NCBI GenBank assembly: GCA_029891345.1 | Contig: CM056994.1 | Coordinates: forward strand, 58,063,251-58,127,250 | Source of the DNA: Dryococelus australis | Taxonomy: Eukaryota > Arthropoda > Insecta > Phasmatodea > Phasmatidae | Direction: 5' to 3' | Length of the DNA stretch: 64,000 nucleotides | In this document: piece after piece, positions 1 through 57,600 of the stretch | Layout of the letters: every line of letters begins with the position of its first letter | Position numbering within the stretch: position 1 is the first letter of the stretch | Position numbers and translations under genes: made by a program | The notes under the pieces: generated by a model | Told to the model about the DNA's origin: nothing | What the model saw: only the letters and a program-made list of their open reading frames with translations | Database searches by the model: none

Positions 1-1740
1 CATATTTCGGGAACCATTTAACTAAATTAAACCAAAATTTGTATGTTGACAGTACATAATGTAAGCATTAAATTCAGTTATAGATATTGTTCTTCGTCCG
101 CCATTTTGGAACATGGCACCACATAAATGAATAAATACGTAACTAAAGCATTTATGTTATAACTCGAAACCTGTTCAATCAATTATAGCCAATGGCGGAC
201 ATACAAGTATATTAGGTGTATTTGATATATCTGCCATAGCGTTTAACCAATTTCGGCCAAATATTTTATGCTAAAAGTATTTATTACAAGCATCATAAAT
301 GCCAACACACATCCACTTTTGTTCCCCGTTTTGTAAGCTAGTGCCACATATGAATTAATAAACGTTCTATGTCATATATTGGGACACTATTAACCGATTC
401 CTGCCAAATTTGGCAAACAAGTAGTGCTGGGGCATTTGATGCAAACTGGTATCTTTTAAGTAGGTCAGGCAGTTATTTCAACAATAATTGCGGCTATATA
501 GCCATATTAGCATAGTATGCTATATTGTCAAAACCAATTAATTAATTCCAACTTAACTTTGTGTGCTCGTAGTATATATTAGGACCATCAAATAACTATT
601 TTTTGTTCGTTGTCTTGTAAGATATCATCACATGATAAAATTAAATTTTTTATGTCATATCTTCCGAAAAAAAAAAAACAGATTCCCACCAAATCTGGCA
701 AACAAGTATCACTACAGCAGGCCATATAAACTAACGTCTTTTGAAGTCAGGCACTTATTTTCTAAATGACGGCCATATTTGTCTTTGAAGAGCCTCATAA
801 CTGCGCCATTTTGTCAGATAGCTGCACATGAAAATATTATGTTTTATGTCATATCTTGAATTATATTTCAATTTGATTTAATTGGTGTTCTATATCTACG
901 AAACTACGGAACATTTTTTCACTTAACTTTATTATTCGTAAAGTCTATGATAATATTCATATGCGCGAATATATAAAATTTTTGTCCTTTGCTTATGAAG
1001 GTCGTCACATTAAAAAAATGGAAGTTTTATGCCATATTTCGAGGACCAATCAAACAATTCCACAAAATTTTACACGCATGCAGTGCTACAGTAGTGTATG
1101 TAAACTAAGAGGTTTTAGGTACAACATGCCTTTTTTAATGGTGTTAATATACATAGTTTAGTTTAATATGTTAAATAATTCAACAAAAATCAACCAACTT
1201 TTGTACATTATATCAGAATTCATAAGGAGCATCGATTATGCGCACAAAGATGTCTACTATTTTGCGTTTTTTTTTTTTTTTCATAATAGTGCCAGGTGAA
1301 AAAAATAACATTTAGCCAATTTTCCGGAACAATTTGATTTCCACCAAAATTTTCACATCAGTAGTACTCCTGAAGGCCATGCAAGGTCACGTAGTTTACG
1401 TGGGGTTAGATATTGATTTTCGGAATGGCGATCAGATAAGTATTTTTATAAGTTTTTCATATCTATTAAACTGTTTAACCAAATTCAACCAAATTTTGTG
1501 TGTTGAGAGTATCTATTAGAAGTGTCGTTTATAAAATTTTCCTTTAAACAATTTTGTACGATAGTTCCAAATTAGAAAGTAAAGTTTCTATGCCATATCT
1601 CGGGGCCAATCAGTTGATTCCCACCAAATTCTTCACAAAGGTAGCACTACAGTAGACTATGTAAACTTAGGTGTTTTAAGTAGCTCAGACACTTATTTTC
1701 AAAATGACTTTGTAAATATTTCGGGTTTGTAAACTCTATC
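1..1740 (+). repeat. Diverged tandem repeat array, ~280-bp period
   Basis: A recurring block reads roughly: 'gtcatatctt', then 'gattcccaccaaattt', then 'aagtagcactacagtagg', then 'gttttaagtaggtcaggca', then 'cttattttcaaaatgacgg'. Clear copies start near 366, 654, 1032, 1316 and 1592, and weaker ones near 7 and 147. Spacing is mostly 276-288 bp. Short ORFs inside (961-1161, 1334-1519) are not conserved between units and look non-coding. The same block occurs in reverse orientation at 25.3-26.5 kb, so this is a dispersed repeat family. Confidence 0.7.
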
Positions 1741-1748
1741 ATTCAAAG

Positions 1749-2385
1749 TCACTGTTGCCCCTGCACACGAAATAGTTCGGGTCTCCAATTCGCCATGGAC
1801 CCTTTCTCGAAGATACCTTTCTGTTTGTAGATGCACACCAGGTCGCCAACCATAGCTTTAGGCTTGTGTGGGTCCCTCCTTTTCACATTAGTGTACACGG
1901 TGCGAAGTAAGGAGTTGTTTTTCACATCTTCGGACTTCATGCCTGTGGTAGAATGAACGGCAGAATTGTACTCGTGGACAAGTTTCGGCAGTAGTGTCAG
2001 CCACTTGTAGTCCTTTCGCAGCGAAATGCCTCCACATTTTTCCCTTCAGAGTCCTGTTGAATCTCTCGACAATAGAAGCTTTGAGATTGCTGAATGTGGA
2101 ATAATCATTTATTTTATGTTTCTTCATCGGAGGCTTGAACTTTTAATTGTAGAATTCCCTGCCCTGGTTGGTTTGCAGATTAGTCGAGATGCATCCTTCG
2201 CAAAATACGTCAGCCATGGCATCGGTGATATCAGGTGCATTCTTCGACTTGACAGGTCTAGTCCGAACGAATTTTCTATAGGCATCGATGACTGCCAAAC
2301 ATGTATTTGTAGTTCTTGTTGACCCAAGCACACAGTATTATCTCGAAGAAGTCGGCTTGAAATAGATCGCTCATTCCACATTACA
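1749..2385 (-). pseudogene. Polinton integrase (rve, DDE) remnant
   Basis: This is the remnant of a retrovirus-like integrase, which in Polintons inserts the linear element DNA. The minus-strand frames hold recognisable core pieces: 'DLFQADF' near the first catalytic Asp, 'NLQTNQGREFYN' around the second, and 'ASIVERFNRTLKGKMW' around the catalytic Glu. A C-terminal stretch 'KPKAMVGDLVCIYKQKGIFEKG' in shortened form (KPKAMVGDLVCIYKQKG) matches the chromo/SH3-like tail common in Polinton integrases. The similarity is spread over several frames, so the gene is broken. It is the leftmost gene of the element, where integrases commonly sit in this family. Confidence 0.8.
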
Positions 2386-2439
2386 GGACATTGCGGCAGT
2401 GGTAGATAGGGCCTGCAGATGCATGAGGTTCATTGATGT

Positions 2440-3240
2440 TACCCAATCGACTCATCGTATCAATCCTCCCTCCTTAAGTTCTTCGATGATTGAAACTATC
2501 TTGTTAGTGTGGGAGAAATTTCCAACCCTTTGCGAAGTGAACAGTAGGTGCAGCCTATCCACCAGTTCGTATGGGTCGTCCCATAATATGTAGTCAATGT
2601 CCTTGTTGCCACCTATCTTCTTTAGATCTTCACCGCTTTACAGTGCTAGACCGCTGAAGAGGTCTGCGAGAATTTCAAATTTTCGTTATCTTTGTCCTTA
2701 TAAGCACCTGCCTCGGGATCATTATCTTGATAAATTGTGTATGTGAGTTCGAGTAAAGTCTTGTTTTCCAACAGGTCAAATTCTGTAGACTCACTGGGCT
2801 CCTTCTGAAACAGAAGTTCGTAAAGCCCAGGGGTTCCATGTGTCTTGTAATCACCAACTCGGATGATTCCACCTGGTAGAAACTCTATTTCATCAGCACC
2901 GAGGAACCATTTATAATTATGCCTGTATACATCGTACATCATATCATTATTACGAGATATGTACGATCGTAGGTACCGGCGAACCAGAGTATCGGGTTTG
3001 AAGGCTCTCTTCCGTTCTTTTTTCTTGTGTGGCAAATCCGCATCCAATCCATCATCCCCATATTTCTACACATCATCATGTTTTTGCTTCTTCAGAAGTT
3101 CAGCAGTATCATAGATTTCGGTCTTTATGGCAATCAAAGCTCCATCGCTCTCCCTGAGTACATCTAGATGACGAGTAATAGGCTTAAATATATCTTCATT
3201 TATAAGGTCGCATGAAATTTAGGCATTCTTGGCGATAAAA
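2440..3240 (-). pseudogene. Conserved Polinton-linked protein, function unknown (remnant)
   Basis: The longest piece (2646-3047) has the block 'EFLPGGIIRVGD' followed by 'GTPGLYELLFQKEP'. Further downstream on the same strand is 'DDPYELVDRLHLLF' with 'NKIVSIIEELKEGGLI'. From memory, these blocks belong to one widespread, uncharacterised protein encoded by insect and hydrozoan Polinton-like elements, where it sits near the ATPase or integrase. No enzymatic motif is visible. The similarity is split across more than one frame, so it is broken. The family assignment is from recognition only. Confidence 0.65.
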
Positions 3241-3419
3241 TAGTTCAAGCGAATAGACAGAATCGTCCGATATAATTAACTGGCAATGTCCGACATCCTA
3301 CTGAATTAAAATTTGTACTATTGCTCTATTTTATAGGTTTACTTTTGGGGCTCTGCCAAAATACTTTCGATCTTGCCCAGGCATTCGCTGCAGACATTCA
3401 ATATGTCCCTGCTGTAATT

Positions 3420-3911
3420 TTAAATATCAGTTTTAGTGGCAAGGTGGTAAATCGAGTTAGTGAATGTACATGTTATATATCCTTCCAGGTTTATCAGATT
3501 CTCTTCATTTTGTGCAGATGCCATATTCAATCTGTCATCAATTCCCTTTGAACATTCGTCACATGATAGTCCATGACCACCATACCATGGGCGATCTCTG
3601 TCTTCACATAGTCCATCTTCGCCCCGAGCTTGGACAGAGTTTCGAAATAATGTGGTTTGTATGGCCAACATACTGCGCAGTTCCGAGATGATACCATTAT
3701 CAGTTTCGAGAACGAAATGTTTAGTAGCATCGTCCTTGGATCGTTCGGGTTCGCCAACATTTCGAATTATTCTTCTACCAGCATCACAAGTTCCATCGCT
3801 TCTTGGTATGGGACAACCTCCGTCGTCGTCTTTTTGAAGACGCAGCTTGAGGTTACTTTGCCCGAATTTCGATATGGTGTATCTCATTCTCGACAGCCAG
3901 TGATCAAATGA
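3420..3911 (-). pseudogene. Uncharacterised Polinton ORF (remnant)
   Basis: A 155-residue open frame, with an overlapping frame containing 'HYFETLSKLGAKMDYVKTEI', lies between the conserved Polinton-linked protein and the packaging ATPase on the same strand. I do not recognise the protein. A TATA box (3942 reading left) and an initiator-like TCATTT (A at 3909) sit just upstream in the minus sense, suggesting this was an independently transcribed gene of the element. Confidence 0.4.
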
Positions 3912-3942
3912 TCTAACCCATACCTGTACCTCCTATTTTATA
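3905..3942 (-). promoter_or_regulatory. TATA/initiator pair before ORF 3420-3911
   Basis: Reading the minus strand, TATAAAATAGGA begins at 3942 and TCATTT has its A at 3909, a spacing of 33 nt. This equals the spacing of the other pairs in this element. Confidence 0.5.
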
Positions 3943-4385
3943 GGGGCCCGTCCTCAACGATCATCAAAAATCTGTATTTCTTTTTCCAGCACAAGACACA
4001 CAGACTCTTGAAATCTGATCTTGTCATATCTGTATTTATGTGGTTGTCATAAACATGGTGTAAATTAGTGTCGTCCCTGCAGGAAAGCACCAACATGTTT
4101 GCATTGTCGCATTTGCATATGCGCGAGTAAGTCTGGCCAAGGTACACACAGTCCACATTCCTGTGCCATCCCATGCAAGAGTATTCTTGAATACAAGTTT
4201 GTTTCTCGAAGGCAGTGTTATCGAAGACAAATATGGAAGTTGGCAGTGCTTCGCTCGGTGGTACGATGGCTTCATTATCGCTGCAGGGGGGATAACCCAT
4301 GCCTTCCATGGCCTGCAGTACTAATGCCAATCGCAGGTATTTCGGTTGCTGGAGCGATTTATAATTAAGGTACCTGTTCATGAAC
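3938..4385 (-). pseudogene. Polinton genome-packaging ATPase (FtsK/HerA, A32-type) remnant
   Basis: The open frame of about 147 residues holds the C-terminal half of the family's packaging ATPase, which in relatives pumps viral DNA into the capsid. Visible blocks are 'SIFVFDN' (Walker B-like strand), 'CMGWHRNVDCVYLGQTYSRI' (the conserved sensor/QTY block), 'DNANMLVLSC' and 'NLHHVYDNHINTDM'. Together these are highly characteristic of Polinton and Mavirus-type A32 ATPases. The N-terminal Walker A region is not part of this frame. The gene is adjacent to, and on the same strand as, the integrase side of the element. Treated as a fossil. Confidence 0.8.
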
Positions 4386-4554
4386 CGGCCGCTCTCTTCT
4401 TCCAGCAGACTTAGTAAAATGCATGCTTACCCCCATTTTGTTAGTCCTACTATGATACACCTTACTGTATTCAGAAATAGGCTTCCATGTCACGATTCGT
4501 GGAAAATATTTTCATCTTTAGCATGAATGCCTATCGGTAGAGTAGCATCTTATT

Positions 4555-4764
4555 TTACGATCCGTAAATTGATTTCTTCTGATTGGTTTTAAACCTACAT
4601 TGGAGGAGGGGAGGCGTTAGCATACACCAGCATCTTGATGACATTAAGAATGTTTTCTTGGTAATGTAATTTCTCTTCAAATCATCACTCTGTTTAAACT
4701 GCCTCTGGCAGAATTCGCACTGAAATGTCATATTTGAATATGTGGTACGTCCATAGTGTTCCAA
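4555..4764 (-). pseudogene. Small C2H2-like zinc-finger ORF of the Polinton (remnant)
   Basis: A short minus-strand frame contains 'FQCEFCQRQFKQSDDLKR', the first half of a C2H2 zinc finger (Cys-x2-Cys, then the hydrophobic and Leu-x-Arg positions). It sits back to back with the PLA2 gene. A minus-sense TATAAATAG (from 4812) lies 33 nt before a CCAAT initiator-like site at 4779. The partner gene is unknown and the function is not assigned. Confidence 0.4.
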
Positions 4765-4778
4765 GTCTATAATTATAT

Positions 4779-4827
4779 TGGAATTTAAATGTATAAAAGT
4801 ATTCTATTTATACTTTTCTCACTCAGT
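4779..4827. promoter_or_regulatory. Divergent TATA/initiator pair of the Polinton
   Basis: Plus strand: TATAAAAG starts at 4792 and TCAGTTC has its A at 4825, 33 nt apart; the PLA2 frame opens at ATG 4836. Minus strand: TATAAATAG starts at 4812 and a CCAAT-type site has its A at 4779, also 33 nt away. The two TATA boxes lie 20 bp apart on opposite strands, which would make a compact bidirectional promoter between the zinc-finger-like ORF and the PLA2 gene. Confidence 0.55.
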
Positions 4828-4835
4828 TCACCGCG

Positions 4836-5444
4836 ATGCCTCGAAGAGGTAAAACCATGGCTGGAAGCAGGATCATTGATACGCTGATCAACAAGCTACC
4901 ATTTGAGCAGCAAATTCCCAGATACAGGTTCTGCAGGCTGGGAACCAAGGCAGCTAAAAGGCTGTCATTCAATGATATAGTCATCAACATGCTGGACGAA
5001 GCATGGAAGCAGCACGCCATAGCCTATTCCCAGCACAAGGATATACATGCCAGACACCAAGCAGACAAGATACTTGCACAGAAGGATGATGAGAAGAAAA
5101 TCATCAGACACATGACTCTGAGAAAAAATAACACCATAGAGGTGATGAAGGTGATGGTGAAGATGGGCATGGTTGCAAATAACAAAATAAAGGCACAAGT
5201 GGAACGAAAAGGGGTGACCAAAGGATCAAAAGCACGCAAGACCAAGAAAATCTCTACTGGCAGATTTTTCCATTCCTTTTGCCTGCACTCAGAGCCCTCA
5301 GGGCATAATAAAAGCCACGACCGGTATCGTCGGAGCCATCAACACAGCATCGAACGATCAGGAGAAGTTGTCCGAGGCACAAAGACACAATGCAAATATG
5401 GAAGCTATCGCCATGGATTAAAAAAATCCAAGGCATGTACCTAA
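4836..5444 (+). pseudogene. Polinton PLA2-domain (parvovirus VP1-like) protein, remnant
   Basis: The 202-residue frame starts 'MPRRGKTMAGSRIIDTLINK' and continues with 'IPRYRFCRLGTK' and 'DIVINMLDEAWKQHAIAYSQ'. These correspond to the calcium loop and catalytic helix region of the parvovirus VP1-type phospholipase A2 domain found in many Polintons and adintoviruses. In parvoviruses this domain opens the endosomal membrane during entry. The basic, lysine-rich C-terminal half fits a capsid-associated or DNA-contacting tail. A TATA/TCAGT pair lies directly upstream. The protease remnant follows on the same strand. Broken copy. Confidence 0.75.
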
Positions 5445-5489
5445 GGCCATGCCCAGTAGGAAGCAGAAGTTTGCAAAAGCGACACAGCA

Positions 5490-5880
5490 GGAAGAGGCGA
5501 TAATGGCATCTTTACCGATACAAGCGCTCACAAAAGTGGATTTAGAACCGTTTGCACACAAATTGAAAGTGCCTAATTTTAGAGGAGTGTTTTTATGAGA
5601 GATGATATGTCCCTTAAACCCAAGGGAGAAGAATGCGCCATAATTAATCTGGACACGACAGCCGGGCCCGATACACAGTAGTTACCTTGTGTAAAAAAAG
5701 GGTAACACACATACTATTATGATAGTTTTGGGAATTTGCGGCTTCCACCCAAACTGCGATGGTACCTGAAATATATAAAACTAACACACAATTACAAGAT
5801 GGAGCAGCTGCCTAACCCGTATAACTGTAGACATTTGTGTCTTTGTTTCCTGGTTCGCTCATACAAGTAATGGTATAAAA
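5490..5880 (+). pseudogene. Polinton adenain-like cysteine protease (remnant)
   Basis: Plus-strand frames give 'PIQALTKVDLEPFAHKLKVP' with 'NFRGVF', then 'AIINLDTTAGPDTQ', then a region resembling the 'YDSFG' strand, and finally a 'HLCLCFL' stretch near 5.84 kb. This order matches the adenovirus maturation protease (C5/Ulp1-like fold, His-Asp/Glu-Gln-Cys) of Polintons, which cleaves capsid precursors. The homologous pieces are spread across frames, so the gene is broken. It lies between the PLA2 gene and the penton-like gene. Confidence 0.7.
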
Positions 5881-5909
5881 TAGCTATACTTTGTGAGGAA
5901 ACCATCAAT
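5874..5909 (+). promoter_or_regulatory. TATA/initiator pair before the penton-like gene
   Basis: TATAAAATAG starts at 5874 and TCAATC has its A at 5907, 33 nt later. It lies immediately before the penton-like frame. Confidence 0.5.
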
Positions 5910-6330
5910 CTTGTCCATAACGCTTACCTTGGAGGGCTGTAGGTCCGAGCTGCTTGCGGTACATTTTCTGTCACTCGACCTGGAGGAGGAATGGAACATA
6001 GGCCTTGTCGATTTTCAAACCTACAATGCGATACCGAACATCGATGAAGAAAAATGTAAGCTGCACCTCGTTAAAAAGTGGAAATGTTTCTCATGAGGTG
6101 ACATTGTTAAGTAAATTGAAGATTCGCTGTCACCTGAAAGAGAATTCGAACTATGTGGAAATCCCAATACTCTGAAGAGTTATCAGATGCAGTGCAGATA
6201 TTGACTATACGAAACCGTATACTATAGGATCGATACTGGGGTTCGAGCCAAGAATCTACGAAGCTGGAAAAACATAATGTGCTGTCGCAGTGCATAAGCA
6301 TCTTGCCAGATAACATGATACGAATAAATT
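5893..6330 (+). pseudogene. Polinton penton-like / minor capsid protein (remnant)
   Basis: The opening frame contains 'LSITLTLEGCRSELLAVHF' and 'NIGLVDFQTYNAIPNIDEEK'. These blocks are typical of the N-terminus of the minor capsid (penton-like, single jelly-roll) protein of Polinton-like elements, whose usual form ends in a 'YNSIPNIDE' block. Weaker remnants continue to about 6.3 kb. In the virion this protein would occupy the five-fold vertices. Broken. The assignment to 'penton' rather than another minor capsid protein rests on memory of the family. Confidence 0.6.
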
Positions 6331-6537
6331 GAAATTTGGCAAGCAGCACATATCTCAATGACAGACTGAGTGCAATGCTACACAAATTTTTGCCCATGGT
6401 CCCTCCAAGTTTTATACTGGCTGAAGCACCTCAAAGCACCACTTATGTTCCGGTCATCGCGAAAGAGCACAGAGGGTGGCCATGACAGTCGTCGACCAGC
6501 ACAGAGAGTCGGTGATCTTTCGAAATGAAGAAATCAC

Positions 6538-6572
6538 TATAAAATAAGACTCGTGCATAACCTGTAATCAGT
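6538..6572 (+). promoter_or_regulatory. TATA/initiator pair before the capsid gene
   Basis: TATAAAATAA starts at 6538 and TCAGTA has its A at 6570, 32 nt later. The first ATG follows at 6573. Confidence 0.55.
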
Positions 6573-7860
6573 ATGTCACAGGTCCCCAAGGAGTTAAGTT
6601 CTAGACCGGGTTATCCTTTGCAGCCTCAGCTACGAGGTCGATTGTCATGGAAGATTACCTAAACATCGAAGAGCTAGCAATTTTCGAAGACAGTGTAACA
6701 AATGTGGAACTTCATGCATACCAGCCATTCCTGATCGGACAATACCATCGGGAGTTCGGATAGCAGTCCAACACCAAGATATCTGCACTCTTCCTTGCTA
6801 GTCTTTCCTGCAAATTAGGGGGAATCTAACAAAACAAAAAAAGTTTGGTCCAACCCAGCATCTACAAAAATAATGAGCAATGGAATTCTTCACCTGATCG
6901 ATCGCATCGCATACTTTCGGCATCAAGGTGGACCTGTCGTGAGATGCAGGCATATCCTCAAAGAATAAATATTACCTTTCACTCATGCTGATTGAGAAGT
7001 CTGCAACCAAGATGACAGGCTGGGGAATCGAAGATGACTACAGTGTTCCTGTATACCCTGGGGGCAAGTTAGAAGTGTGCATTCTGCTATCCATGCTATT
7101 GGGATTTACCGAAGACTACAAACGAATTATCTTAAATTAGAAGCAGGAACTGGTGCTGCTCCTAGCCAATACACATGTGACAACCATCGTAGGTACTGGA
7201 AAAAACTTGGAGACAGTGGAACTGAAACTAAATTCTATAAAATGGATGCTGCCTCATGTGTAGTTGAACACTGCATAATTCATCAATATGCTGAAGAACG
7301 TAGAAGATGGCAAACACATCGATTTGGCTTTCAGGTCGTGGAGTCTCGAGACATACCCCAGATTGCCAGCAAGCCAGCACATCAGCTGAATGGTAAAGTC
7401 TAGCTTTGCTTCTGAGAAACAGAGGTACATCATCGTTGGGCTTGAGACTGGAAGACAGCACAATGTAAGAGTGAGCCATTCACAGTTCGACACATGTCAA
7501 ATAGAAAAGCGAAAATATTTTTGAATAGCGAAAACTACCAGTATGTTGACATGAACATGAACTAAGAAAATTGACAGTATCTGTAGGAATATCAGATTTA
7601 TGCTTAGTTCCAAAATGCATATTATGGGCGCTCCCAATCCACGATATTGAGTCCTGACACTGTCAAGAGTTTGGCCCCACTCATTGTATTCGATGTGAGT
7701 AAACAGGACGAGAGTTTAATCAGTAATGTGATAGACTGCAGAATCGAATTCACTGCAAATGGAAATATCCCTGCCAACTTGTACATATTCTTCCTTATAC
7801 TTCACGACCAGATTGTATCATACAATTACTGAGATAATGCCGTCAAGACACTGTCGTAAG
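6573..7860 (+). pseudogene. Polinton major capsid protein (double jelly-roll), remnant
   Basis: Separate stretches match successive parts of the Polinton major capsid protein: 'AYQPFLIGQYHREFG' and 'VRIAVQHQDICTLP' near 6.72-6.80 kb, 'LLGFTEDYKRIILN' near 7.10 kb, 'IDLAFRSWSLETYP' near 7.32 kb, and 'RYIIVGLETGRQHNVRVSHS' near 7.42-7.48 kb. The order and spacing fit the double jelly-roll capsid gene that would build the icosahedral shell. The pieces lie in several frames, so the gene is broken at multiple places. This is the best evidence that the element belonged to the capsid-bearing Polintons. Confidence 0.8.
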
Positions 7861-7880
7861 CGCAGCTGAGAATATATAAT

Positions 7881-7916
7881 TATAACTTCTCTCACACTAT
7901 AACTGTTTAGTCATTT
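7881..7916 (+). promoter_or_regulatory. TATA/initiator pair before the last Polinton ORF
   Basis: TATAAC starts at 7881 and TCATTTTC has its A at 7913, 32 nt later, continuing the spacing rule of this element. Confidence 0.45.
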
Positions 7917-8450
7917 TCGAGCAACATCAGCTTCAACATGTACATCTGCAGGATTTCCAGAGCCAAAATTGCTTCGTGCTCAAGGAGATTGCAGTGTCCT
8001 ATGACGATGATGGTAAAACACGAACCCGCTCCTTCCGCCTTCCATACCCCTGAAAACTGTTGTATGAGAAGATCAAGATAACAAACACATGGTTGTGCAC
8101 GTATTACATATTCCATGTCATCCGATGGGAAATGTGCTACAAGACTTGCTGATGCAGTACCTGTAGGCCCCGATTTATGTAGTTGGACCCGAGCAGAAAA
8201 AATGGCTTAGCAATTTGTGTAAATTTAAAGTGGTAATAATCGATTAGTAGGCCGAGTATGGATGTCCTTCGATTCGCAAGCTCTTTAAAATGCACGGGGC
8301 GATTCGCATCGTCATGTCTGCGACAGGTCTGAACCTGACCGGGTCTGTGCACTGAAGAACGTACAGTTGCTGCCCAAATGGTGCACCTCATCCTTGCACC
8401 AGGAACTGGGTGCCTATGAGTAGACACGAAATCGTCCGAATCGAAGAAGA
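7913..8450 (+). pseudogene. Uncharacterised terminal Polinton ORF (remnant)
   Basis: One plus frame reads 'NCFVLKEIAVSYDDDGKTRT' and later 'CTYYIFHVIRWEMCY', 'LDPSRKNGLAICVNLKW' and 'SISRPSMDVLRFASSLK'. The pattern resembles an uncharacterised protein often found in insect virus-like elements, with a 'VLKEFAV ... HGIRW ... KKWL' layout, possibly a decayed DnaQ/exonuclease-like fold. I cannot confirm the fold. An AATAAAA at about 8454 could be its polyadenylation signal. Broken. Confidence 0.4.
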
Positions 8451-8460
8451 TTAATAAAAA

Positions 8461-9984
8461 TTATTGATATTGTGCTGATTATGTATATCTTATTATGTGT
8501 ACAGTCAATCTTGCATAAAAAAGGCTGCTCTTTATTTATTTGAAAAATTTCCACTTCATATGACCATTCTTTAATTTAAAAAAAATTAAATATGACAGTG
8601 TATGTAATTAGCAGAAACAGTCAATGTCACCATTCGGTACAGGCCGATAGCAGGTGGTATAATCGACAAATTAACACCACTTATTTGTTGCAAATATAAT
8701 CCAATATGGAGGGTGCCGACAGTGCCACCTATACTTTAAAAAACATAAACAAATATGGCCGCCACCTGGTGACGATATCGATCATTCTTACACTAGTGTC
8801 CTCTAGGTAATGAAAACCAACATGGCAGTCGAACGAAGTGAGAGACAAACTCCAGCAATGTATAAACAAATGACAAACTAAAAAGCAAGATGGCGAACAT
8901 CGACTGTGATAATTACCAATATGGCAGTCGAACAAAGGTGAGAGACAGCCTACCAAGATGGCAGTCGTGACACCTACCAAGATTGAGGAATTATTATGGG
9001 TGAGGGGTGCCCACCAGAAATTTATATTTCTTAAAATACATTTTTAATAACTTTTGATAATTTTTTAACAATAACTTTTTATAAATTCTTTGGGATTTTT
9101 TTAAGAATTTTTTTTGGGAAAGGGGGAAATTTTCAGGGAAAAAGGGAAATTTTTTTGGAAATAATGGCCACTGGGTGACTGGGATTTTTTTAATAATTTT
9201 CTAATATTTTTGTATTTATTTTAGTACAGTTCATTTTTTTGGAATTTTTTAGAATTTTTTTGGAATGTTTTTGAATTATTTTCGAATTTTTTGGATTTTT
9301 GTGGTTAAAGGTCAAGATTCAATTGTCAAAGGTCAAAGGTCAATTATCAATTGTAACTGACTTCTAAGAGGGCCACTGGCAGATCGGAATTACAGGGCAT
9401 GAACAGCTCCGAGCTCTGGTCCCTTTGCAACTGAATCGGTCAAATCCTTCTACTGCCGTCTTTTTAACGAAATAACTCTAAACACGTCAGTAGTAAGAGA
9501 TGGTAACAGTTGTAACAGGGTTAAATACAGTAGCGGCAATATATTAACGTGTATTGTCTGTAATGTGCTATATCGTAAATAATGCAAGATGTTAACAATA
9601 TGTAAAATAATAACCATAAGAACTATTATCAATACGTAATAGTTTATTATGGTTATAGGGCTAAATTTCTAACATTTATACGCAATGCTTTCAGAAATGT
9701 GCCAGCATTCTTTGAACAGCTGAAAACAGTTAACAAATCATTTGACAGTTGAAACATAGAAATCATATGGCAGTGTTTTTGTTTACATGTAGCAGAAGGA
9801 TACATAATCGGCACCAAAAAGTATAACTTAAGCAGGGCTTCAGAATAGTGTGAAGTAACCTTGAATGGCCTATAAATGTATCACCTGCACGAAATAATTA
9901 TGTTACATACTCTCCCTTATAGTGGAATTTCCATAAAGCATATACAAATATTCTGTGAAATGCTATGTCCCCAGGTACAGAGAC
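8461..9984. other. Non-coding gap between Polinton and odorant receptor
   Basis: No supported gene. 8810-8965 holds three imperfect repeats beginning 'accaayatggcagtcg' (8817, 8917, 8952), the first two followed by 'gaacRaa..gtgagagaca'. 9001-9340 is very T/A-rich low complexity built on 'ttttttggaattttt'. 9300-9355 holds a short 'ggtcaaaggtcaa' run. The odorant receptor starts at 9985. Confidence 0.6.
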
Positions 9985-10730
9985 ATGGGCGAAAATGTGG
10001 AAGATTTGGAAAGTCATATCTTGGCTTTCACAACTAAAAGGTTGGCAAAAGTCGGTCTTTGGCCCTATGGGCGGGAATCGAAGTTTTATCAGACGCGAGC
10101 CTTGCTAATGGCTGCGAACGTCTATACAGTTGCGATCCTGCTCACTTCTGTCTACTTCGAGGAGCTGCCGAGCGTGAGCACGCTGATAGAGAACACAGGC
10201 CACATCCTGACGATCGTCCCCTGCTGCGTGGCCGTGGTTCGCCTGCGGTTCTGCTGCCCGGCCTTCCGGACCGTCGTCGCCAGCATGAGATCGACTATGT
10301 CTCCGCAAGATGAGCTGGTGCGCTCGGCGGTCGCCGAAGAGGAGAGGATCGCCCGGATGTACACCTTTGTCGTGTGCGCCACCAGTCTCAGCATGTTCAC
10401 CGGTCCGCTGGTGGACCTCGCAGTGGGTCGCCGTGCAGCATCCCTGCCGCTCGACACGTGGCCGCTGACGCCCAGGGTAACCCCCGCCGACTTGGCTGTC
10501 GAATATATTATCCAGCTGGTCGTCGTGTCCACCCTCCTCGTCGCTATGTCGTCCATCGACTCGTTCGTCTTCGGGCTCGTCAAGTACTCCGCCCTGCAGC
10601 TACGGCTGTTCAGCGCGTCGCTGGCGGCTCTGGGTCGAGTGAGTCGGCGACCACGTGGCGTCCAACAAACCCAAGTATCATCCGAGAAGCAACTTGAGGA
10701 ATACGTGAAGCGTCACCAGGGGATACTCAA
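9985..10730 (+). CDS. Odorant receptor exon 1
   Basis: It encodes residues 1-248 plus two bases, covering the cytoplasmic N-terminus, TM1-TM4 and most of the second intracellular loop ('KQLEEYVKRHQGIL'). It is GC-rich compared with the flanks. It ends at a strong donor, gtgagt at 10731. Confidence 0.92.
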
Positions 10731-13700
10731 GTGAGTTTAATTATTATTTTATTTCCTCCTCGTACTCGTTCGAGGCAGCACAGCACTCGAAGTTGTCTGC
10801 TGGCATTCCAAAGACCACAATGCGGTTGCAGCGAATATAATGGTTACCTAAGAGAAAAGGAAGGAACTCTTCCAAGAAAAAATAGTTTTTCTTAGTTCCA
10901 TAAATAAAAAGACTGTATAGATGTTTTAATGAAATCGCTAAGATAATCGATTTAGCCATGAAGGAAAACTGGGTGGAAACATCAGCAACATTATAATATT
11001 GATGTCCTTCTAAACATCAAAGGGAAGATATGGCTTAGAAACTAACTCGCGAAGAAACTTAGCTTAAGCAGCTGTGACACGCTTTTGAATATTTATATAG
11101 CCTCCATCAGGGGGTGGTAAAATAATAATTTAATTTATTTGGAGATTTTTGTGCCCCCCCCCCCCCCCGACCGGCAACAAGGCCTTAGTAGGGGAAGCCA
11201 GACATTTAGGAATAGAGAAGGAACCGGCCAATGCATGTATTTCTGAACCATCCCAGCATTCGCCTGGAGTAATTTCAGTAAACCCTGGAAAATCAGGGCC
11301 GTGGTGGTGTAGTGGTTAGGCCACTCGCCTCCCACCATGGCGAATTTGGGGGGAATGCAAGTGAGATCATTTAGGGGATGTAATTGTTGTTTTGCCAGCC
11401 TGCCACCCCTAATAGTAATAATATACCATTTACAGCACTTAAATATGTTTAAAACCAAATAAATAAATAAATAAAGTCATGAAGTAAATGTGATTACATC
11501 ACAAGATAGCAGCCATGACCACAAAAAAAATTAAGTTGTTAGCCCTGCCAATGTTAAAAATGGTGTTAGCGTGGCAGTGGTCCGTAACATTAAAGCATTG
11601 CGTTCTGGTGCTGCTCCGTACTCATCTCACTTCATCCTCATCGGCTCTCAAGGCCTCGATATTAAGAGCCGCCGAATCTCTTCACACTTCACCTTGGAAA
11701 ATCAAAATTAGGATGGCCGGACTGGGACCAGATCCTTCCGAATACGATCCCAGTGGCTTCCCACTGTGCCATCTCGCTCGGTTACCTGGAAAGGTGGCAA
11801 CATGCAATTCATTATTTTGTTGACTCTAAAAAAATTAATAAGTGATGATTAATTATGTTTGCTTATAAAGGATTCAAGATAATTAATACAACTGGTTATG
11901 CACAGTTGTCGTAATCACTCGAATGCTACGTTCGTGTGGCGATGAGGCCAGACTTTGAAATATTTATATATTATCGTTTGTATTGTGTATTTATTTGTAT
12001 GTATTAATATATGGTAATGTATTTTAGCATAAGAATGTTCTAACACACATATTTATAATAATATTCCTTTTTTCGTTTTTCATTATTTACTATTATTATT
12101 TTAAGTTTACTTGAGCTTTAAGTATTCATTTGGCTTAAGTTTATTTAATTGTTTAAATAATATATTTTATTCGTTTATTTTCTTTTCGTTATACATATGT
12201 AAGTTATTTTAGTAATATATTTAATAATTATGTTTTAATGAATGTTTTAAGGAATAAGTGTGTTAAAGCAGTAATCCTGTGGTTCTGAGCCCACTCTAAT
12301 CGAAGTGTCTCGTGGCCTTTAGTCTAACTACATAATCTATCGTTGTAAAATGCAGCTTTTAACTATTCTGTTATGTAAATGCAGATCTTAACTTATAGAC
12401 TAGCATCAGTTATCGACGTTGGATCATCCCACAAGCATGCAGTGAATGGCAAAAATCTCATCATAACATCCTTGTATTTAGATTATAGGACCCTTCAAAA
12501 TCGCCCTTTGACCAAGAAACCCTTTCTCTTGATATGCTGATGCTACAGACAAATCCTGTACCTTACTTATTCTAGTGTTTTTTTTTCTTTCTTTCTTTCT
12601 TTCTTTCGTTTTTAGGAATATGCGGAATTTGGCTGATCTACTGAGTCCTTTATTCTTCGCGCATTATCTCGTTTCTTCAGCTGTCATCTGCCTAGTTGGG
12701 TGCCGAATGTTTGGGGTGAGTTTTAAAAGATGAGAATAAAATGTTAAAACATTTCCATCTTTCTTAATTTTTAAAATGAAAATCAGTTAATACATCCTAC
12801 ATAACTATATCGTTATTTTTGTCATACATTTCTTGATGCGCGTATTGCTTCGTGTGGGAATGTTTTCGCAGGCGAAGGAACTGCCTAACATGATCACCAG
12901 TCTTGGCCAACTCGTATGTATCGTCTACAGACTGTTCTTGCTGAGCTACTTCTCATCAGAGGTCATGAGCCAGGTACAGTACTGCATCACGTACGACGAA
13001 GCCGCTGTCTTTCCAGCAACGTGCAGAGCACGATGGTTTGAAGCTAGCTTTTTACTCTGAGGCACATTGTTTTATGCCAGCCCCGGACTGACCGGGGACT
13101 TCTTTGGTACTGTGATTATCTCGTGTTGACAAAATTATTTTCCCGGTGTGCTATAGTTTCCCTACCGTCATAACCTATCACACATCGATAATTCTCGACG
13201 ATAGACAGGAATAATATACATTTCCATCAGGTAGATACACTGCGAGAAAATTTTTTTTGGCCAATTAAATAATTTGTTTGAATAGCTTTAACAAAACACA
13301 GGCGATTGTTTCCAAAAAAATATGTGAATAAAAACCTTAAACAAAACATGAAGGAATCATAAGCAATAATGGGGCATCCTCCCTATCTTATCGTCACCAT
13401 TTCCAGATGTAAATAGGCTGATGAAAGATAAAACCTGCAACATGCATATTTAATTAATTTTACTATAATATTTCATAGACTCTGTAAAATATTTTATTTG
13501 CAATAAATGTATTGTTTACCTACGGCCTTACAAGTTAATCATTCATATGGGTAAAAACCTATTCCATCACACAAAAATGTCCAAATATTTATTCTTAGTT
13601 ATTAAGTTAACTGAAAAAAAATTTTGTACAATTGTATGAAAAAAAATATGTTTGTTCAAGTACATTAATAATTTCTCAATCCTTCTAACGGACCATACAT

Positions 13701-51600: not shown

Positions 51601-54600
51601 AATGTTAACTAGAAAAATGTCTGCAGTACTGCAAGTATTGTCAGCATTAATTGAATGGCTAGATACCCAAATGGTTTGTATGAGCGCAAGTGCAAATAGC
51701 TTAAAAGTAAATGTAAATAACAAAACCAGTAGTGTAAACTATAATATAATTAGTGTAAATGAGAATGTAAATAGCCAGGTAATTAATGTAAGTGATTTAG
51801 TAGACATGACAATGGATAATGTAGATAGGAAAATAGACACTGAAAAATGAAAATGTAGACAAAAAATAGACCTTGTATATGACAAAATTAGACATGAAAA
51901 TAGACACTGTAAATGAAAATGTAGACAAGAAAAGAGATTCTGTAAATGAATATGTAGACAATAAAATAGATCATGTAGATAGTAAAATGGACAAAATTAG
52001 ACAGGAAAGTAGACTGTAAATTAAAAAGTAGAGAAGAAAAGAGACTCTGTAAATGAATATGTAGACAACAAAATATATCATGTAGATAGGAAAATAGAAG
52101 GCATTAACAAGTTGGCCGAGAATTCACTGTACGAACGAAATAAAGAACAGTGTAAATCAAATAGTGAATAGTGCAAACAACACAATGAACAGTGTTGAGA
52201 ATGAAGTAAAACAGCAAATAAGTGAGAAGAAGAAGGAATGAGAGGAATTTATTCAGCAACAGAGTGCACTACCTTCACACCTGCAAACGAGAAAAATGGG
52301 GAAGCAGTATAAGTCGTCACCAACAGAGCAACATCGGAAGATAGCCAGTAGCTGTGTAGCAGTAGCGTCGCGCAGCCAGGAGTAGGGAAAGGGGTCTCAA
52401 TTAAACCTGTCCCTTATGGTGGCCAGAATTCTTGGCGGTAGTACGAACACCAGTTTGAAATAGTCGTCATCCTGAATGGCTGGTCAGCCGAACAGCGGGC
52501 TTATTACCTCGCAGCTGTACTGAGCAACCCTGTACCCAGCATATTATAATCTCTGCCAGAGCAACATAAACTGGAGTACCCCACACTGGTGTCGACCTTT
52601 GAGCTACGTTTCGGCGACTGGTACCTGCGACATGCCCACCATTCTCAGCTGCAAAGTCGCACACAGCGAACAGGAGAGCCTCTGCAAGAACTATGCCAAG
52701 ACATCGTGCGACTCTCCCACCTATCTTTTTGGAGGGGTGCCCCGAGGAGGAGCGCGACATCATCGCAGTCGGCTTCTTCATCGATGCCATCGGCGACACA
52801 GAGGTTTGGCAGGTGGTACGTCTAACTGCTGCCCACAACATGCAGGACGCCCTGGACCGAGCACTGGAGGTGGAGTCAGCAAGACAAGGAGCTGCACCCC
52901 GACGTCCGGAACGGGCTGTGACGCTGAACGAAGACGATGACAGCATCAAGAAGAAGACATTGAAGAAGAACGAGACGGCCATCAAAGACATCGCTTCCAG
53001 GGTCCAAGCTACAGAGCTTAGCCCCCCTCCCCCAACCCAAACGGCCTGAGTGTTGATCATGTGGACAGCCGGGCCACCTGAGAGCCTATTGCCTATAACA
53101 GCAGCAGCAACAGAAGCAGCAGTAGGACAATAGGCAGCGAGAGGCAGGTGAGCATACAGCACATTCACAAAACTAGTAAACACCGATCTTGAGGAGTGAA
53201 GTTGAGTGATTGCTGGAAGGTGGGCCCCAATTTTCTTACATACGCATCTGTTGAAACAGGATTTGGATGGAACACTGGTGGAGTGGAGCCAAAATGACGT
53301 TTTTTGCCTGATGGTCGTGGACACTGAGGTGATCATGAGAGCAGTAACACCTGACATCCTCGTGCCTTCCCCCCAGCGATCACCCGACGACAGTATGGAA
53401 CGATGTTATTTGACTACAGTAACATGTGAGACCAAACCAGTTAGAGGTAAGAGAAAAGTGATCTTGAAGGTTGGTCAACTTATCATAGAACATTATATAT
53501 ACATAGCACATATAGAAGAAGCATTTATTTTTGGGCTTGATGAACTATGTAGGCTGGGCTGCTGTATTGGTACTCGACTTGGTGTGCTACGAGTAGGCAG
53601 TACAGAGTTGATGGTGTCAACATGGCATGATTAGTGCTCCTCAGTTAGCTGGCCAGTAGTATTTGGTCAAACCACTGTGCTGCCCTTTTCTAGTAAAATT
53701 GTCATTACAGGCAGATGTTAAGGGGAATTTGTCAGGCATTTGGATCTAATTGAGCCAGCAGTGAGGGTTGGCATCCTGCCAGGTAAAGTCGTTGTAGCAA
53801 GGACTTTGGTCTCTTCTAATGCAAATAATTTTCAGTTAGAACGATAAAGGCCATTGATCTTGAGAAGGGAGCCATGATAGGTGTTTGCAAGCAGGTCACA
53901 CACATATTTCCAAATGTTCCAGAAGATTGTAGATTAGAACAAACAGAATGTCTTCTAAACAGAAGTACCAGATGAACTGCTAGTACGAACAAAATGAGAT
54001 CATAACTGGCACCAGGAAAAAGCTGTCTCTGAATTACTTCAGAGAAATATGGATGCCTTCCCCTGTGGACCAAAGGACCATAGAACGACTAAAGTGACCT
54101 GCCACTACAATTATACAGGAGATTCCAGGCCCATAAAGCAGCCACCAAAACGACTGCCACTAGCCTCGCATGAGGCAATTGAGGAAATTCTGAAATAAAT
54201 GAGGGAGTTAGATATGATTGAACCATCGGCTAATTCGTGGTCGTCACACATTATATTTGTTAAGAAGAAAGATGGCTCTCTGAGGTTTTGTGTACATTAT
54301 CGCCAGCTTAATAATGTGACCAAGAAAGACTCTTATTCGCTTCCTAGGAGTGATGACACATAGAACAGCCTAGTACATTCGCAATGTTTTTCTACTTTGG
54401 TCATGAAGAGAGGGTACTGGCAGTGCGAGGTAGCACCAGAGGACCAAGAGAAGATTGCATGTTGTGTACAAGGGAAAGGGATCTGGCAGTTCTAAGTTAC
54501 GCCTTTTGGGGTGTATAATTTTCCTGCCACCTTCGAATGCCCAATGGAAAAAATTTTGCCTTTAGATATCTGTCAAGTTTACCTAGATGACATTGTTGTG

Positions 54601-57600
54601 AGGAAGGACATGTGAAGAGCACCTACCATGCATAGACTCTGTATTCCAGAAAGTGATCACAGCCAACTTGAAACTAGTTCCTAAGAATTGACCCCCCTGA
54701 AAGAGTCAGCATCTTCAAGAATATGACTTTGAAATACAAGACAGATCTGGACACCTTCACAGCAATGCATATGCAATTTCTAGAAAACCACGTGAGTCAT
54801 TCTGTCATCATTTTGAACACCAAGAAGATAACAGTGGTGGATCACTGAAGGTAAAGAGGACAAGAATTCAAGGTTCTTTATCTCGTGATCGGACGCCTAT
54901 CTGGAGTACTGAGGATATTAGGAAAAATCAGCTGAATGACCCCACTTTGCAGCCATTATTAAAGTGGAAAGAAGCTGGCTGTCGGCCAAGATGGGAAGAG
55001 ATATCCAGTGTGAACACAGTAGTCACAGCGTACTGGGCACAATGTAATACCCTTGTACAGAAGAATGGCGTAATTTACAGAAACTGGGAAAGTGATGATG
55101 GAAAACACGTCCATTTTCAGTTGGTCCTTCCAGAATGTAGGGTTAAAGAAGTCTTAGAGGAACTGCATAATGCGGCAGCCAGTGGGCACTTTGGTGCTAA
55201 TATAACCCTTGACAGAGTTAGGCTGAGATTTTACTGGATTCATTGTCGGGAGCATGTTGAGAACTGGTGCCGAATGTGCGACACCTGCACTGCTAGGAAG
55301 AGCCGAGGGCCAAGGGACAAGGTCACCTCCAGAAATACAATGTTGGAGCCCCAATCGAGAGAATGGTAGCGAATATTCTGGGACCCTTGCCTGTCAGAGA
55401 GAGAGGAAATTGGTATCTCCTGGTGGCCCAAAATTACTTGACTAAGTGGTCTGATGTCATTCCCCTCCCAAACAAAGAAGCACCTACTGTGGCCGATGCA
55501 CTCATAGAGCTTGTCTTCTCGAGGTTTGGGTGCCACTAGAACTCCATTCTGATCAGGGAATAAACTTTGAAGCTTCGGTGTTCCAGGTGCTAACAAAAAT
55601 TTTGGGGATGAAAAAGACTGGCACTACAGCCTTACACCCTCAGTCGGATGGAATGGTCGTGAGGCTAAACCACAGATTTTGAACACTACTTGTCGGATTT
55701 TGTGGCAGACAACCAAAATAACTGGGATTCAAAGCTGTCATTGTTTCTTCTTGCTTAGTGCTCGGTAGTTCACAAGTCTACAAGGGTAACACCATCAAGG
55801 ATGCTGTTGGAAGAGAGCTACACCTCCCTAGTGACCTGCTGTTTTACCGACCGACAGAAGAGGAAGCTGCAGCTCCTGATTATGCCAGCGAATTATGTAA
55901 CAGACTAGTTGGCATTCATGAATTTGCTCGACAGCACATCAGAATAAATAGTGACAGGATGAAGATGCGGTATAATAGGGAAATGACGGGCGAGGTATTT
56001 CTAGAAGGACAACTGGTGTGGCTGTGCAACCCACAGAATAGAAAAGGGTACTGCTTGAAGCTACAGAAATGTTAGGAATGCCCCTACAGGATTCTATAGA
56101 AGATTAATGACCTGATCTTTCGTAATTGTTGTCAAGCCTCTCGGGCGAAGCCGAAACTTGTCCACATCGACCGAGTGGCACTCTATGAAGGACCAGATGT
56201 AGCAGAGTCTGTCTGGGATAAACAGACTCCAGGAGAGGGCAGTATTACAGGCGGACGCTTTTTGAGCATGCGAGACACGGATTATTTATTGATGCGCGCG
56301 CTATGAGTTGCAACTAGAGATGCAGCGTCTTTTCCTAAAGGACTGTTTACAAAGGGTGTATGTTATGCCTATCAGGGTGCATGCTGCTCCCTACCTTGGG
56401 TATAGGGTGTCTTTGAGACATCTGAAGAATGCTCTGGATCACTGACATTGTTTCTCTCAGCTAGACTTGGGGTGCGGTGAACCTTTCAAGTCAAGACCAG
56501 TAGCTATATAAACCAGAAGTTGTTGAGTGGTTGAATAGCAGGAGTTTTGGTGATAGACGACGGACGAGCGAAACGAGTGGCGACAGAATTGACCAGCGGG
56601 AGGAAAATCTGCGAGTGCGAGCAGCGGCACAGTGAAGAATACAACTGCAGGCTGGACTATTGTACTGGATGCGTGAGTGAAAGACATTACAAATGAGGGC
56701 AACAGACCGACTGAATGTGTGCTAATGATGAGAATGAGTTAATTGAGTATAACGAAACAGACACATTCAGAAGGATGTTAATTAGAGTTAAGTAGACATT
56801 AAACATTTCGCTCACTGATAAATACGAAATAGAAATAGTGGGAATAGATAATTTAATGCTGTAAATAATAGCTGTGTGAATAAATAAGAAATCAAATATA
56901 ATTCTGGTATTTTTATTGGGATCTCCATCCCTCACGAATTCAGATACACCCCTCAGGCATTCATGTGACAATATTATTACACTGTGTGCTCACGAATGCG
57001 GTCCATTGTCCCTTTGGTGTAATTTTCTAGACTTTGTTAAGCTTTGTTTGCCTAAGGGGAAGGAATATCCTGAAAGTTGAACTTTAGCAGGACTTCAGAA
57101 AATTTGGGAGAAACTGTGAATGGTCTATCTTAAATTAATTGTTCATGTCATCATCATGTAATGGGAATATTTACATCGTCATTTTGTATGCTGTTGAGAT
57201 AAACTTTAAAGTCGGTGTAGATAAAAGTTAAACTATAATCGCAGGTAAACCAAATCAGACTTCAAATAAATTGCCAACATGGCAAATATGACTTCAAGAA
57301 ACACTGTACCCTTAAAAAAAAAAAAAAAAATGTATCAAGAGAATTTTTTGAAACTGTTAAAACTCTCATATGTATTCTAAGTAACGTTATATGAATGTAA
57401 TAGTTCAAATAATTTTACATATTTTATTAATTTATAATTGATACATACCATGTCTCGAAACAATAAACTACCCTTAAAATACATAAAATAATTTTGGTTA
57501 ACGAACGGCCTTTTGTACCTGGAGCTTGAAGTTATGCTGCAGTATGTTTGAAACATTTGTTTTTTTTTTTTTTTTTACGAAACTATTTTACATGCGTCAT

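What the first reader, a model, noticed from the sequence alone, without database searches (positions are those of the whole stretch)
1741..8460. Polinton fossil that still shows its whole capsid-building module
Packaging ATPase, adenain-like protease, PLA2-type protein, penton-like protein and double jelly-roll capsid protein can all be recognised within 6.7 kb, beside an rve integrase, although the copy is broken. This places it among the capsid-bearing Polintons. The family B polymerase is not visible, so it may belong to a compact or truncated lineage.
Basis: partly seen in the sequence, partly recalled or inferred. Interest (0 to 1): 0.75.

Follow-up and report, generated by a model that had tools for sequence, protein, structure and literature searches.

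The report
Polymerase-less capsid-bearing Polinton family in insect
This is a decayed copy of a small virus-like mobile element in an insect genome that kept shell-building and integration genes but shows no DNA polymerase gene of its own, and it has many smaller relatives that carry little more than the DNA-packaging motor.

Summary
Window 1752-9454 is one decayed, left-truncated Polinton/Maverick copy: integrase, an unnamed protein X and packaging ATPase (minus strand); PLA2-like, adenain-like protease, penton-like and double-jelly-roll (DJR) capsid genes (plus strand); right terminal inverted repeat (TIR). Best proofs: Pfam DJR E=1.8e-15 in the window; rve 4.2e-11 and PLA2 1.2e-11 in a sister copy. 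Protease and penton rest on motif and position. Host: almost certainly Dryococelus australis.

'Compact' is right: the best sister copy is about 8.1 kb, gene-packed between TIRs, with no PolB hit. PolB lies elsewhere (54 matches).

New here: of 16 ATPase-bearing loci read, 11 are a smaller derivative ('B') with the same termini and essentially one ORF: finger(s)-ATPase-tail. Its ATPase shows purifying selection on internal branches (dN/dS 0.16, 0.07-0.31; shifted-frame controls 1.35 and 1.69). Two of 7 B loci read widely are head-to-head palindromes inside one target-site duplication. My reading: replication by a trans-supplied polymerase, B a packaging-motor satellite. The genome search with the capsid piece did not complete; capsid copy number is unknown.

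The parts
1752..2473 (-). RVE-type integrase gene, broken, C-terminal end next to the cut left edge
   Evidence: tblastn with sister pieces L017:7639-8081 and 7189-7710: 51-75% identity; sister piece is Pfam rve E=4.2e-11. By eye the second catalytic Asp (TDQG in the sister) reads TNQG here.
2482..3164 (-). Protein X (C-terminal part), unnamed
   Evidence: tblastn with sister pieces, about 70% identity; no Pfam hit for the window piece above E=0.12 or for the sister piece.
3420..3932 (-). Open frame that probably belongs to the N-terminal part of X
   Evidence: ORF of 170 aa; 130 codons align with sister piece L017:9079-9471, dN 0.231, dS 0.442. Assignment to X is inference.
3899..4567 (-). 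Genome-packaging ATPase (A32/FtsK type), Walker A destroyed
   Evidence: tblastn with P0001, 51% over 230 columns; Walker A reads GLTKWG*A, Walker B SIFVFDN, 4 stops in the aligned stretch.
4555..4803 (-). C2H2-finger-like piece upstream of the ATPase
   Evidence: Pfam zf-C2H2_4 E=0.016, zf-C2H2 E=0.028, both under cut-off.
4866..5195 (+). Phospholipase A2-like domain
   Evidence: tblastn 50% to sister piece; PF08398 E=0.0094 here, 1.2e-11 in the sister.
5491..5867 (+). Adenain-like cysteine protease (motif-based)
   Evidence: tblastn 54-67% to sister pieces; THW / YYDSFGN / NCGHLCL in the sister recalled as the H-D-C pattern of adenain; no Pfam peptidase hit.
5788..6541 (+). Penton-like (minor capsid) protein, by position and recalled motif
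   Evidence: tblastn 44-59% to sister pieces; no Pfam or homologue hit.
6611..7790 (+). Double-jelly-roll major capsid protein, in several frames
   Evidence: Pfam PF21738 E=6.9e-8 and 1.8e-15; tblastn 55-71% with sister pieces in at least three frames.
8578..9454 (.). Right terminal inverted repeat; outer end about 9454
   Evidence: Four blocks within 8578-9314 match the left TIR of the L005 copy inverted, 74-80%; terminal motif AGTAGAAGG at 9454.

Best explanation
A decayed member of a compact Polinton/Maverick family of a stick insect. Shown: gene order TIR-INT-X-ATPase | PLA2-protease-penton-capsid-TIR, about 8.1 kb in the best sister copy, no PolB hit, shared termini, and target-site duplications near 6 bp. 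Inferred: linear element DNA was integrated by an RVE integrase (its own in the window and L005 forms, another's in forms without INT), replicated by the protein-primed PolB of other Polintons in the same genome, and packaged by the ATPase into a DJR capsid. Derivative B kept the shared ends and a finger-ATPase ORF and used the rest in trans.
For: Gene content. L005 copy: TIR arms L017 5962-6921 / L018 4113-3200, 75.2% over 992 columns, integrase and capsid ends directly beside the arms. L011 copy: arms 82.4% over 988 columns, no PolB, no INT. PolB queries: 0 hits in the window and the A and B loci read. PolB present elsewhere: 54 matches. A and B termini share AGTAGTAGG-like ends. Duplication agreement 6/6, 5/6, 5/6, 4/6 in 4 copies. 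ATPase fold: best solved matches are STIV2 packaging NTPase B204, E 2e-3, TM 0.32-0.36, so weak; predicted viral structures: 24 at E<=0.001, many named packaging ATPase (the model is of homologue P0004, mean pLDDT 74.8).
Against: Only 4 full-type (A) copies were read, only L005 with both outer ends in view, all found through ATPase similarity; the ATPase list scored 150 of 20060 candidates and the PolB list 91 of 6288, so a PolB-bearing parent with a more distant ATPase could be missed. No TIR was found around the one PolB copy read further out, so nothing ties those polymerases to these TIRs. One of four target duplications is weak (4/6; 9.7% of shifted comparisons reach it), and I set the element ends by eye. 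Two of 4 A copies lack INT. Capsid-side dN/dS between A copies is 0.53-0.73, a weak sign of selection.
Confidence: 0.65

Rival explanations
1. The compact A form is only one internal-deletion product among many of an ordinary 15-20 kb Polinton with PolB; it was moved by its parent and has no history as a lineage.
For: Deletion forms are plentiful: L008 (ATPase plus capsid end plus right TIR), the INT-less pair L010/L011, B. Fragmentary Mavericks with only PolB or only integrase are on record in a midge (PMC8504770, passages).
Against: L005, L011 and the window copy share one gene order across dS 0.26-0.60 in the ATPase, and integrase, X and ATPase between window and L005 have dN/dS 0.31-0.35. 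The same pattern would arise if a full parent had evolved that way, so this is not decisive.
Confidence: 0.3
2. The B elements are dead passengers; the ATPase signal reflects an unsampled full-length parent that shed B copies repeatedly.
For: The tail shows no clear selection (pairwise dN/dS 0.70; shifted frames 0.72 and 0.80). Closest B pairs approach 0.5-0.95. Tail internal-branch dS is only 0.044 against 0.355 for the ATPase on the same tree, which I cannot explain and which could mean recombination.
Against: 13 ATPases from 11 B loci form one clade, bootstrap 100; one tested tree that splits them is rejected, AU p=4e-5; 11 of 11 B loci carry the tail; ATPase internal dN/dS 0.16 (0.07-0.31).
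Confidence: 0.35
3. A host gene family or an artefact: chance similarity in repeats.
For: Window genes are broken, and some gene labels lack profile support.
Against: DJR E=1.8e-15, rve 4.2e-11, TIRs and target duplications, co-linearity over 2.7 kb at 76%.
Confidence: 0.02

Closest known systems
Polinton/Maverick (Polintoviruses of Krupovic et al. 2014, PMC4028283, passages seen)
   Same: RVE integrase, packaging ATPase, DJR capsid protein, TIRs; protease and penton probable.
   Different: About 8.1 kb instead of 15-20 kb, no PolB seen. That survey removed elements under 10 kb as incomplete, so such forms would not have been counted.
Adintoviruses (PMC11071296, passages seen)
   Same: Virion-gene set and rve integrase in an insect.
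   Different: Defined there by PolB with an OTU-like domain, a hexon, and an integrase with a C-terminal chromodomain; no PolB here, and the integrase C-terminal piece of the sister gave no Pfam hit.
Polinton-like viruses (PLVs)
   Same: DJR capsid with other than the full Polinton replication set.
   Different: PLVs mostly lack both pPolB and RVE integrase and carry other replication proteins (PMC11071308, passage); here integrase is present and no replication protein was recognised.
Maverick repeats of stick insects (Timema cristinae, Clitarchus hookeri; PMC5691397, one passage)
   Same: High-copy Mavericks in stick insects are on record (145,675 copies, 3.13% of T. cristinae).
   Different: The passage gives counts only; no ATPase-only derivative or layout is described in it.
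Snap-back or copy-back defective genomes of protein-primed viruses (recalled, no call)
   Same: Head-to-head inverted duplication of one genome end between identical termini.
   Different: B keeps an ATPase under selection; defective genomes usually keep no selected gene (recalled).

Membership tests
Polinton/Maverick | Protein-primed PolB | tested here: not met
   PolB queries from two families in this genome: 0 hits in the window and in the A and B loci read; PF03175 places (54 matches) do not include them. Partial PolB queries, few copies.
Polinton/Maverick | RVE integrase | tested here: met
   PF00665 E=4.2e-11 in sister L017; window match by tblastn. Absent from 2 of 4 A copies.
Polinton/Maverick | FtsK/A32 packaging ATPase | tested here: met
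   Window 51-55% identical to Pox_A32-family proteins; fold of homologue.
Polinton/Maverick | Adenovirus-like cysteine protease | tested here: inconclusive
   Recalled H-D-C motif in sister pieces; no Pfam peptidase hit.
Polinton/Maverick | DJR major capsid protein | tested here: met
   PF21738 in window, E=6.9e-8 and 1.8e-15.
Polinton/Maverick | Single-jelly-roll penton | tested here: inconclusive
   Position before the capsid gene and recalled motif; no hit.
Polinton/Maverick | Terminal inverted repeats | tested here: met
   About 1 kb in L005 and L011; window copy keeps only the right one.
Polinton/Maverick | 6-bp target-site duplication (recalled as a Polinton mark) | tested here: met
   6/6, 5/6, 5/6, 4/6 in 4 copies; not testable for the window copy, which lacks its left end.
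Polinton/Maverick | Length 15-20 kb | tested here: not met
   L005 copy about 8.1 kb.
Adintoviruses | PolB with OTU-like domain plus matching hexon | tested here: not met
   No PolB in the copies read.
Polinton-like viruses | Mostly no RVE integrase, other replication proteins | tested here: not met
   Integrase present; no other replication protein recognised.

The most novel reading that the evidence does not exclude
A helper-satellite system fossilised in one genome: capsid-bearing Polintons without a polymerase, polymerase-bearing elements elsewhere, and small satellites (B) that carry only a zinc-finger-fused packaging motor, which directs borrowed capsids to their own DNA, with copy-back palindromes as by-products of protein-primed replication.
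Probability: 0.2. Interest if true: 0.8.

Novelty: new variant of a known kind. Interest (0 to 1): 0.5.

Why it matters
Whether Polintons ever moved as virus particles is an open question. A family in which capsid genes persist without a polymerase, beside small derivatives in which only the packaging motor shows purifying selection, makes it testable by sequence: a selected packaging motor is hard to explain unless packaging mattered. Surveys that discard elements under 10 kb would not see such forms.

Tried and rejected
Horizontal transfer of B between cockroach and stick insect: my first guess at the host was Periplaneta; the published N50 (262.27 Mb) equals contig C4 (262,277,254 bases) and 17 large scaffolds fit D. 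australis, so the D. australis proteins P0016, P0028, P0097, P0098 come from the same genome and the idea was dropped. Viral contigs as a source of relatives: three scans gave no true relative; the one hit, L001, is a phage contig by its long ORFs, a chance match. Penton homologues: none. TIRs around one PolB copy: none found within about 4 kb on either side beyond the locus. A sharp end common to four P1 PolB copies looked like coding homology fading, not a terminus.

Literature: searches (listings, with passages of the papers cited) showed no description of a PolB-less capsid Polinton family or an ATPase-only derivative; I did not read all listed papers, so this is not proof of absence.
Full report
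Setting. The window is G000:C2:58063251-58127250 of a 3,415,067,245-base genome. I treat the host as that stick insect; no name was given. An odorant-receptor-like ORF lies beside the element (7tm_6 E=1.9e-9).

The element. Sister pieces map integrase, X, ATPase, PLA2, protease, penton-like and capsid genes in order onto window 1752-7790. Pfam supports DJR capsid in the window and rve and PLA2 in the sister copy L005. The ATPase aligns with a family of which 94 of 98 proteins found are 209-247 aa long. The right TIR lies at about 8578-9454. To the left, similarity to the L005 copy stops at window 1763; no left TIR was found in window 1-2000 or in the 10 kb before the window. Decay: Walker A reads GLTKWG*A, the capsid gene runs through at least three frames, and the window copy has the longest terminal branch among 18 ATPases (dN 0.123, dS 0.281, the largest dS). 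The genome paper warns of indel errors in its long-read assembly.

Compact layout. The L005 copy lies between TIRs of about 1 kb (75.2% alike over 992 columns), about 8.1 kb in all (ends), with integrase and capsid genes directly beside the two arms. The L011 copy has arms 82.4% alike over 988 columns, its right outer end was not reached, and it lacks integrase; L010 also shows no integrase hit. So 2 of 4 A copies have integrase, and none of the A copies shows PolB at the stretches read. Arms 18-25% apart speak for old insertions; I have no calibrated rate.

PolB elsewhere. PF03175 gives 54 matches in this genome, about 47 places when neighbouring matches are merged by eye, 91 of 6288 candidates scored. 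The ten loci fetched include two families and share no DNA with the window, L014, L017, L018 or L025 at E<=1e-8. By eye no listed PolB place lies within 80 kb of a listed ATPase place; both lists are capped.

Derivative B. The window ATPase piece has at least 150 relatives (150 of 20060 candidates scored). I read 16 of those loci: the first 12 by score, plus 4 chosen for long open frames, so not a random sample. 4 are co-linear with the window (A: window, L005, L010, L011), 1 is another deletion form (L008), 11 are B. B shares with A the ATPase and the terminal sequences, and adds a tail whose last 60 residues resemble the end of X (38% over 64 columns). Sizes: about 3.0 kb (L004, one end just outside the locus), 4.2 kb (L015/L016), 7.2 kb (L031/L032), 10.3 kb (L025/L026). 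Some B copies have C2H2-finger-like sequence in one open frame with the start of the ATPase (L030:2-664; zf-C2H2 E=0.0021, below Pfam's cut-off; ATPase residues 1-44 in the same stretch). A strict C2H2 pattern occurs in 0 of the 98 homologues.

Selection. 13 ATPases from 11 B loci form a clade (bootstrap 100); one alternative that splits it is rejected (AU p=4e-5). On that tree dN/dS is 0.16 on internal B branches (0.07-0.31, 100 codon bootstraps) and 0.49 on terminal branches, L008 included. Repeated without L008: 0.17 and 0.50; the same codons read one or two bases out of frame give internal values of 1.35 and 1.69. Finger plus linker: internal 0.25, controls 0.96 and 0.83. The tail gives no clear signal: pairwise 0.70, controls 0.72 and 0.80. 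Close pairs are near 0.5-0.95 (0.35 in one of the twelve closest), as expected for copies decaying after insertion. The sample favours copies similar to the query, which lowers dN/dS somewhat.

Termini and palindromes. Ends read AGTAGTAGG or close to it in A and B. Flanking 6-mers agree 6/6 (L031/L032), 5/6 (L005), 5/6 (L025/L026), 4/6 (L015/L016); 0.07%, 1.3%, 0.65% and 9.7% of shifted comparisons reach as much. I chose the ends by eye at the motif. In 2 of 7 B loci read over 20 kb the unit between one such pair of ends holds two head-to-head ATPase regions (L031/L032; L025/L026, whose second copy is incomplete). The list has two more close pairs (C1:163.08 Mb, C2:277.23 Mb), both head-to-head. 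This fits snap-back replication of linear, protein-primed DNA; that step is inference.

Mechanism. Shown: gene content, TIRs, target duplications, absence of PolB hits in the copies read, PolB genes elsewhere, selection on the B ATPase. Inferred: integration by an RVE integrase, replication by a trans-acting PolB, packaging into DJR capsids, the finger as a self-recognition device.

Known context. High-copy Mavericks in stick insects are on record (PMC5691397, one passage), and fragmentary Mavericks are too (PMC8504770, passages). The D. australis paper has no mention of Maverick or Polinton in its main text. Elements under 10 kb were removed from the 2014 capsid survey (PMC4028283, passage). 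So the fossil itself is ordinary; the polymerase-less layout and the selected ATPase derivative are a new variant.

Noticed in passing
window 9937-10734 (+): Odorant-receptor-like ORF (7tm_6 E=1.9e-9) beside the element.
   Followed up: partly
L016 1910-4986: A palindrome of about 3.1 kb, 72.6% alike with its own reverse, holding B-tail sequence in both arms but no ATPase hit.
   Followed up: partly
G000 C1:278433945 and C3:65957846: Two ATPase copies on different contigs with the same score and the same three stops: duplicated DNA, or a dead copy that was copied again.
   Followed up: no
G000 C3:107700700 (-) and C3:107724071 (+): Two ATPase copies 23 kb apart in opposite orientation with identical scores and 398-aa open frames.
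   Followed up: no
L045 3547-3912: C2H2 fingers (PF00096 E=1.1e-13) before a family-P2 PolB gene; fingers may be common to polymerase and ATPase genes of these elements.
   Followed up: partly
L019 69-962: Protease-like and PLA2-like fragments on the minus strand, upstream of the L010 copy: probably another Polinton fragment.
   Followed up: no
B tail versus B ATPase: On the same tree the tail has internal-branch dS 0.044 against 0.355 for the ATPase; unexplained, perhaps recombination.
   Followed up: no
window 52470-55366: Long ORFs that look like retroelement pieces by eye; not tested.
   Followed up: no
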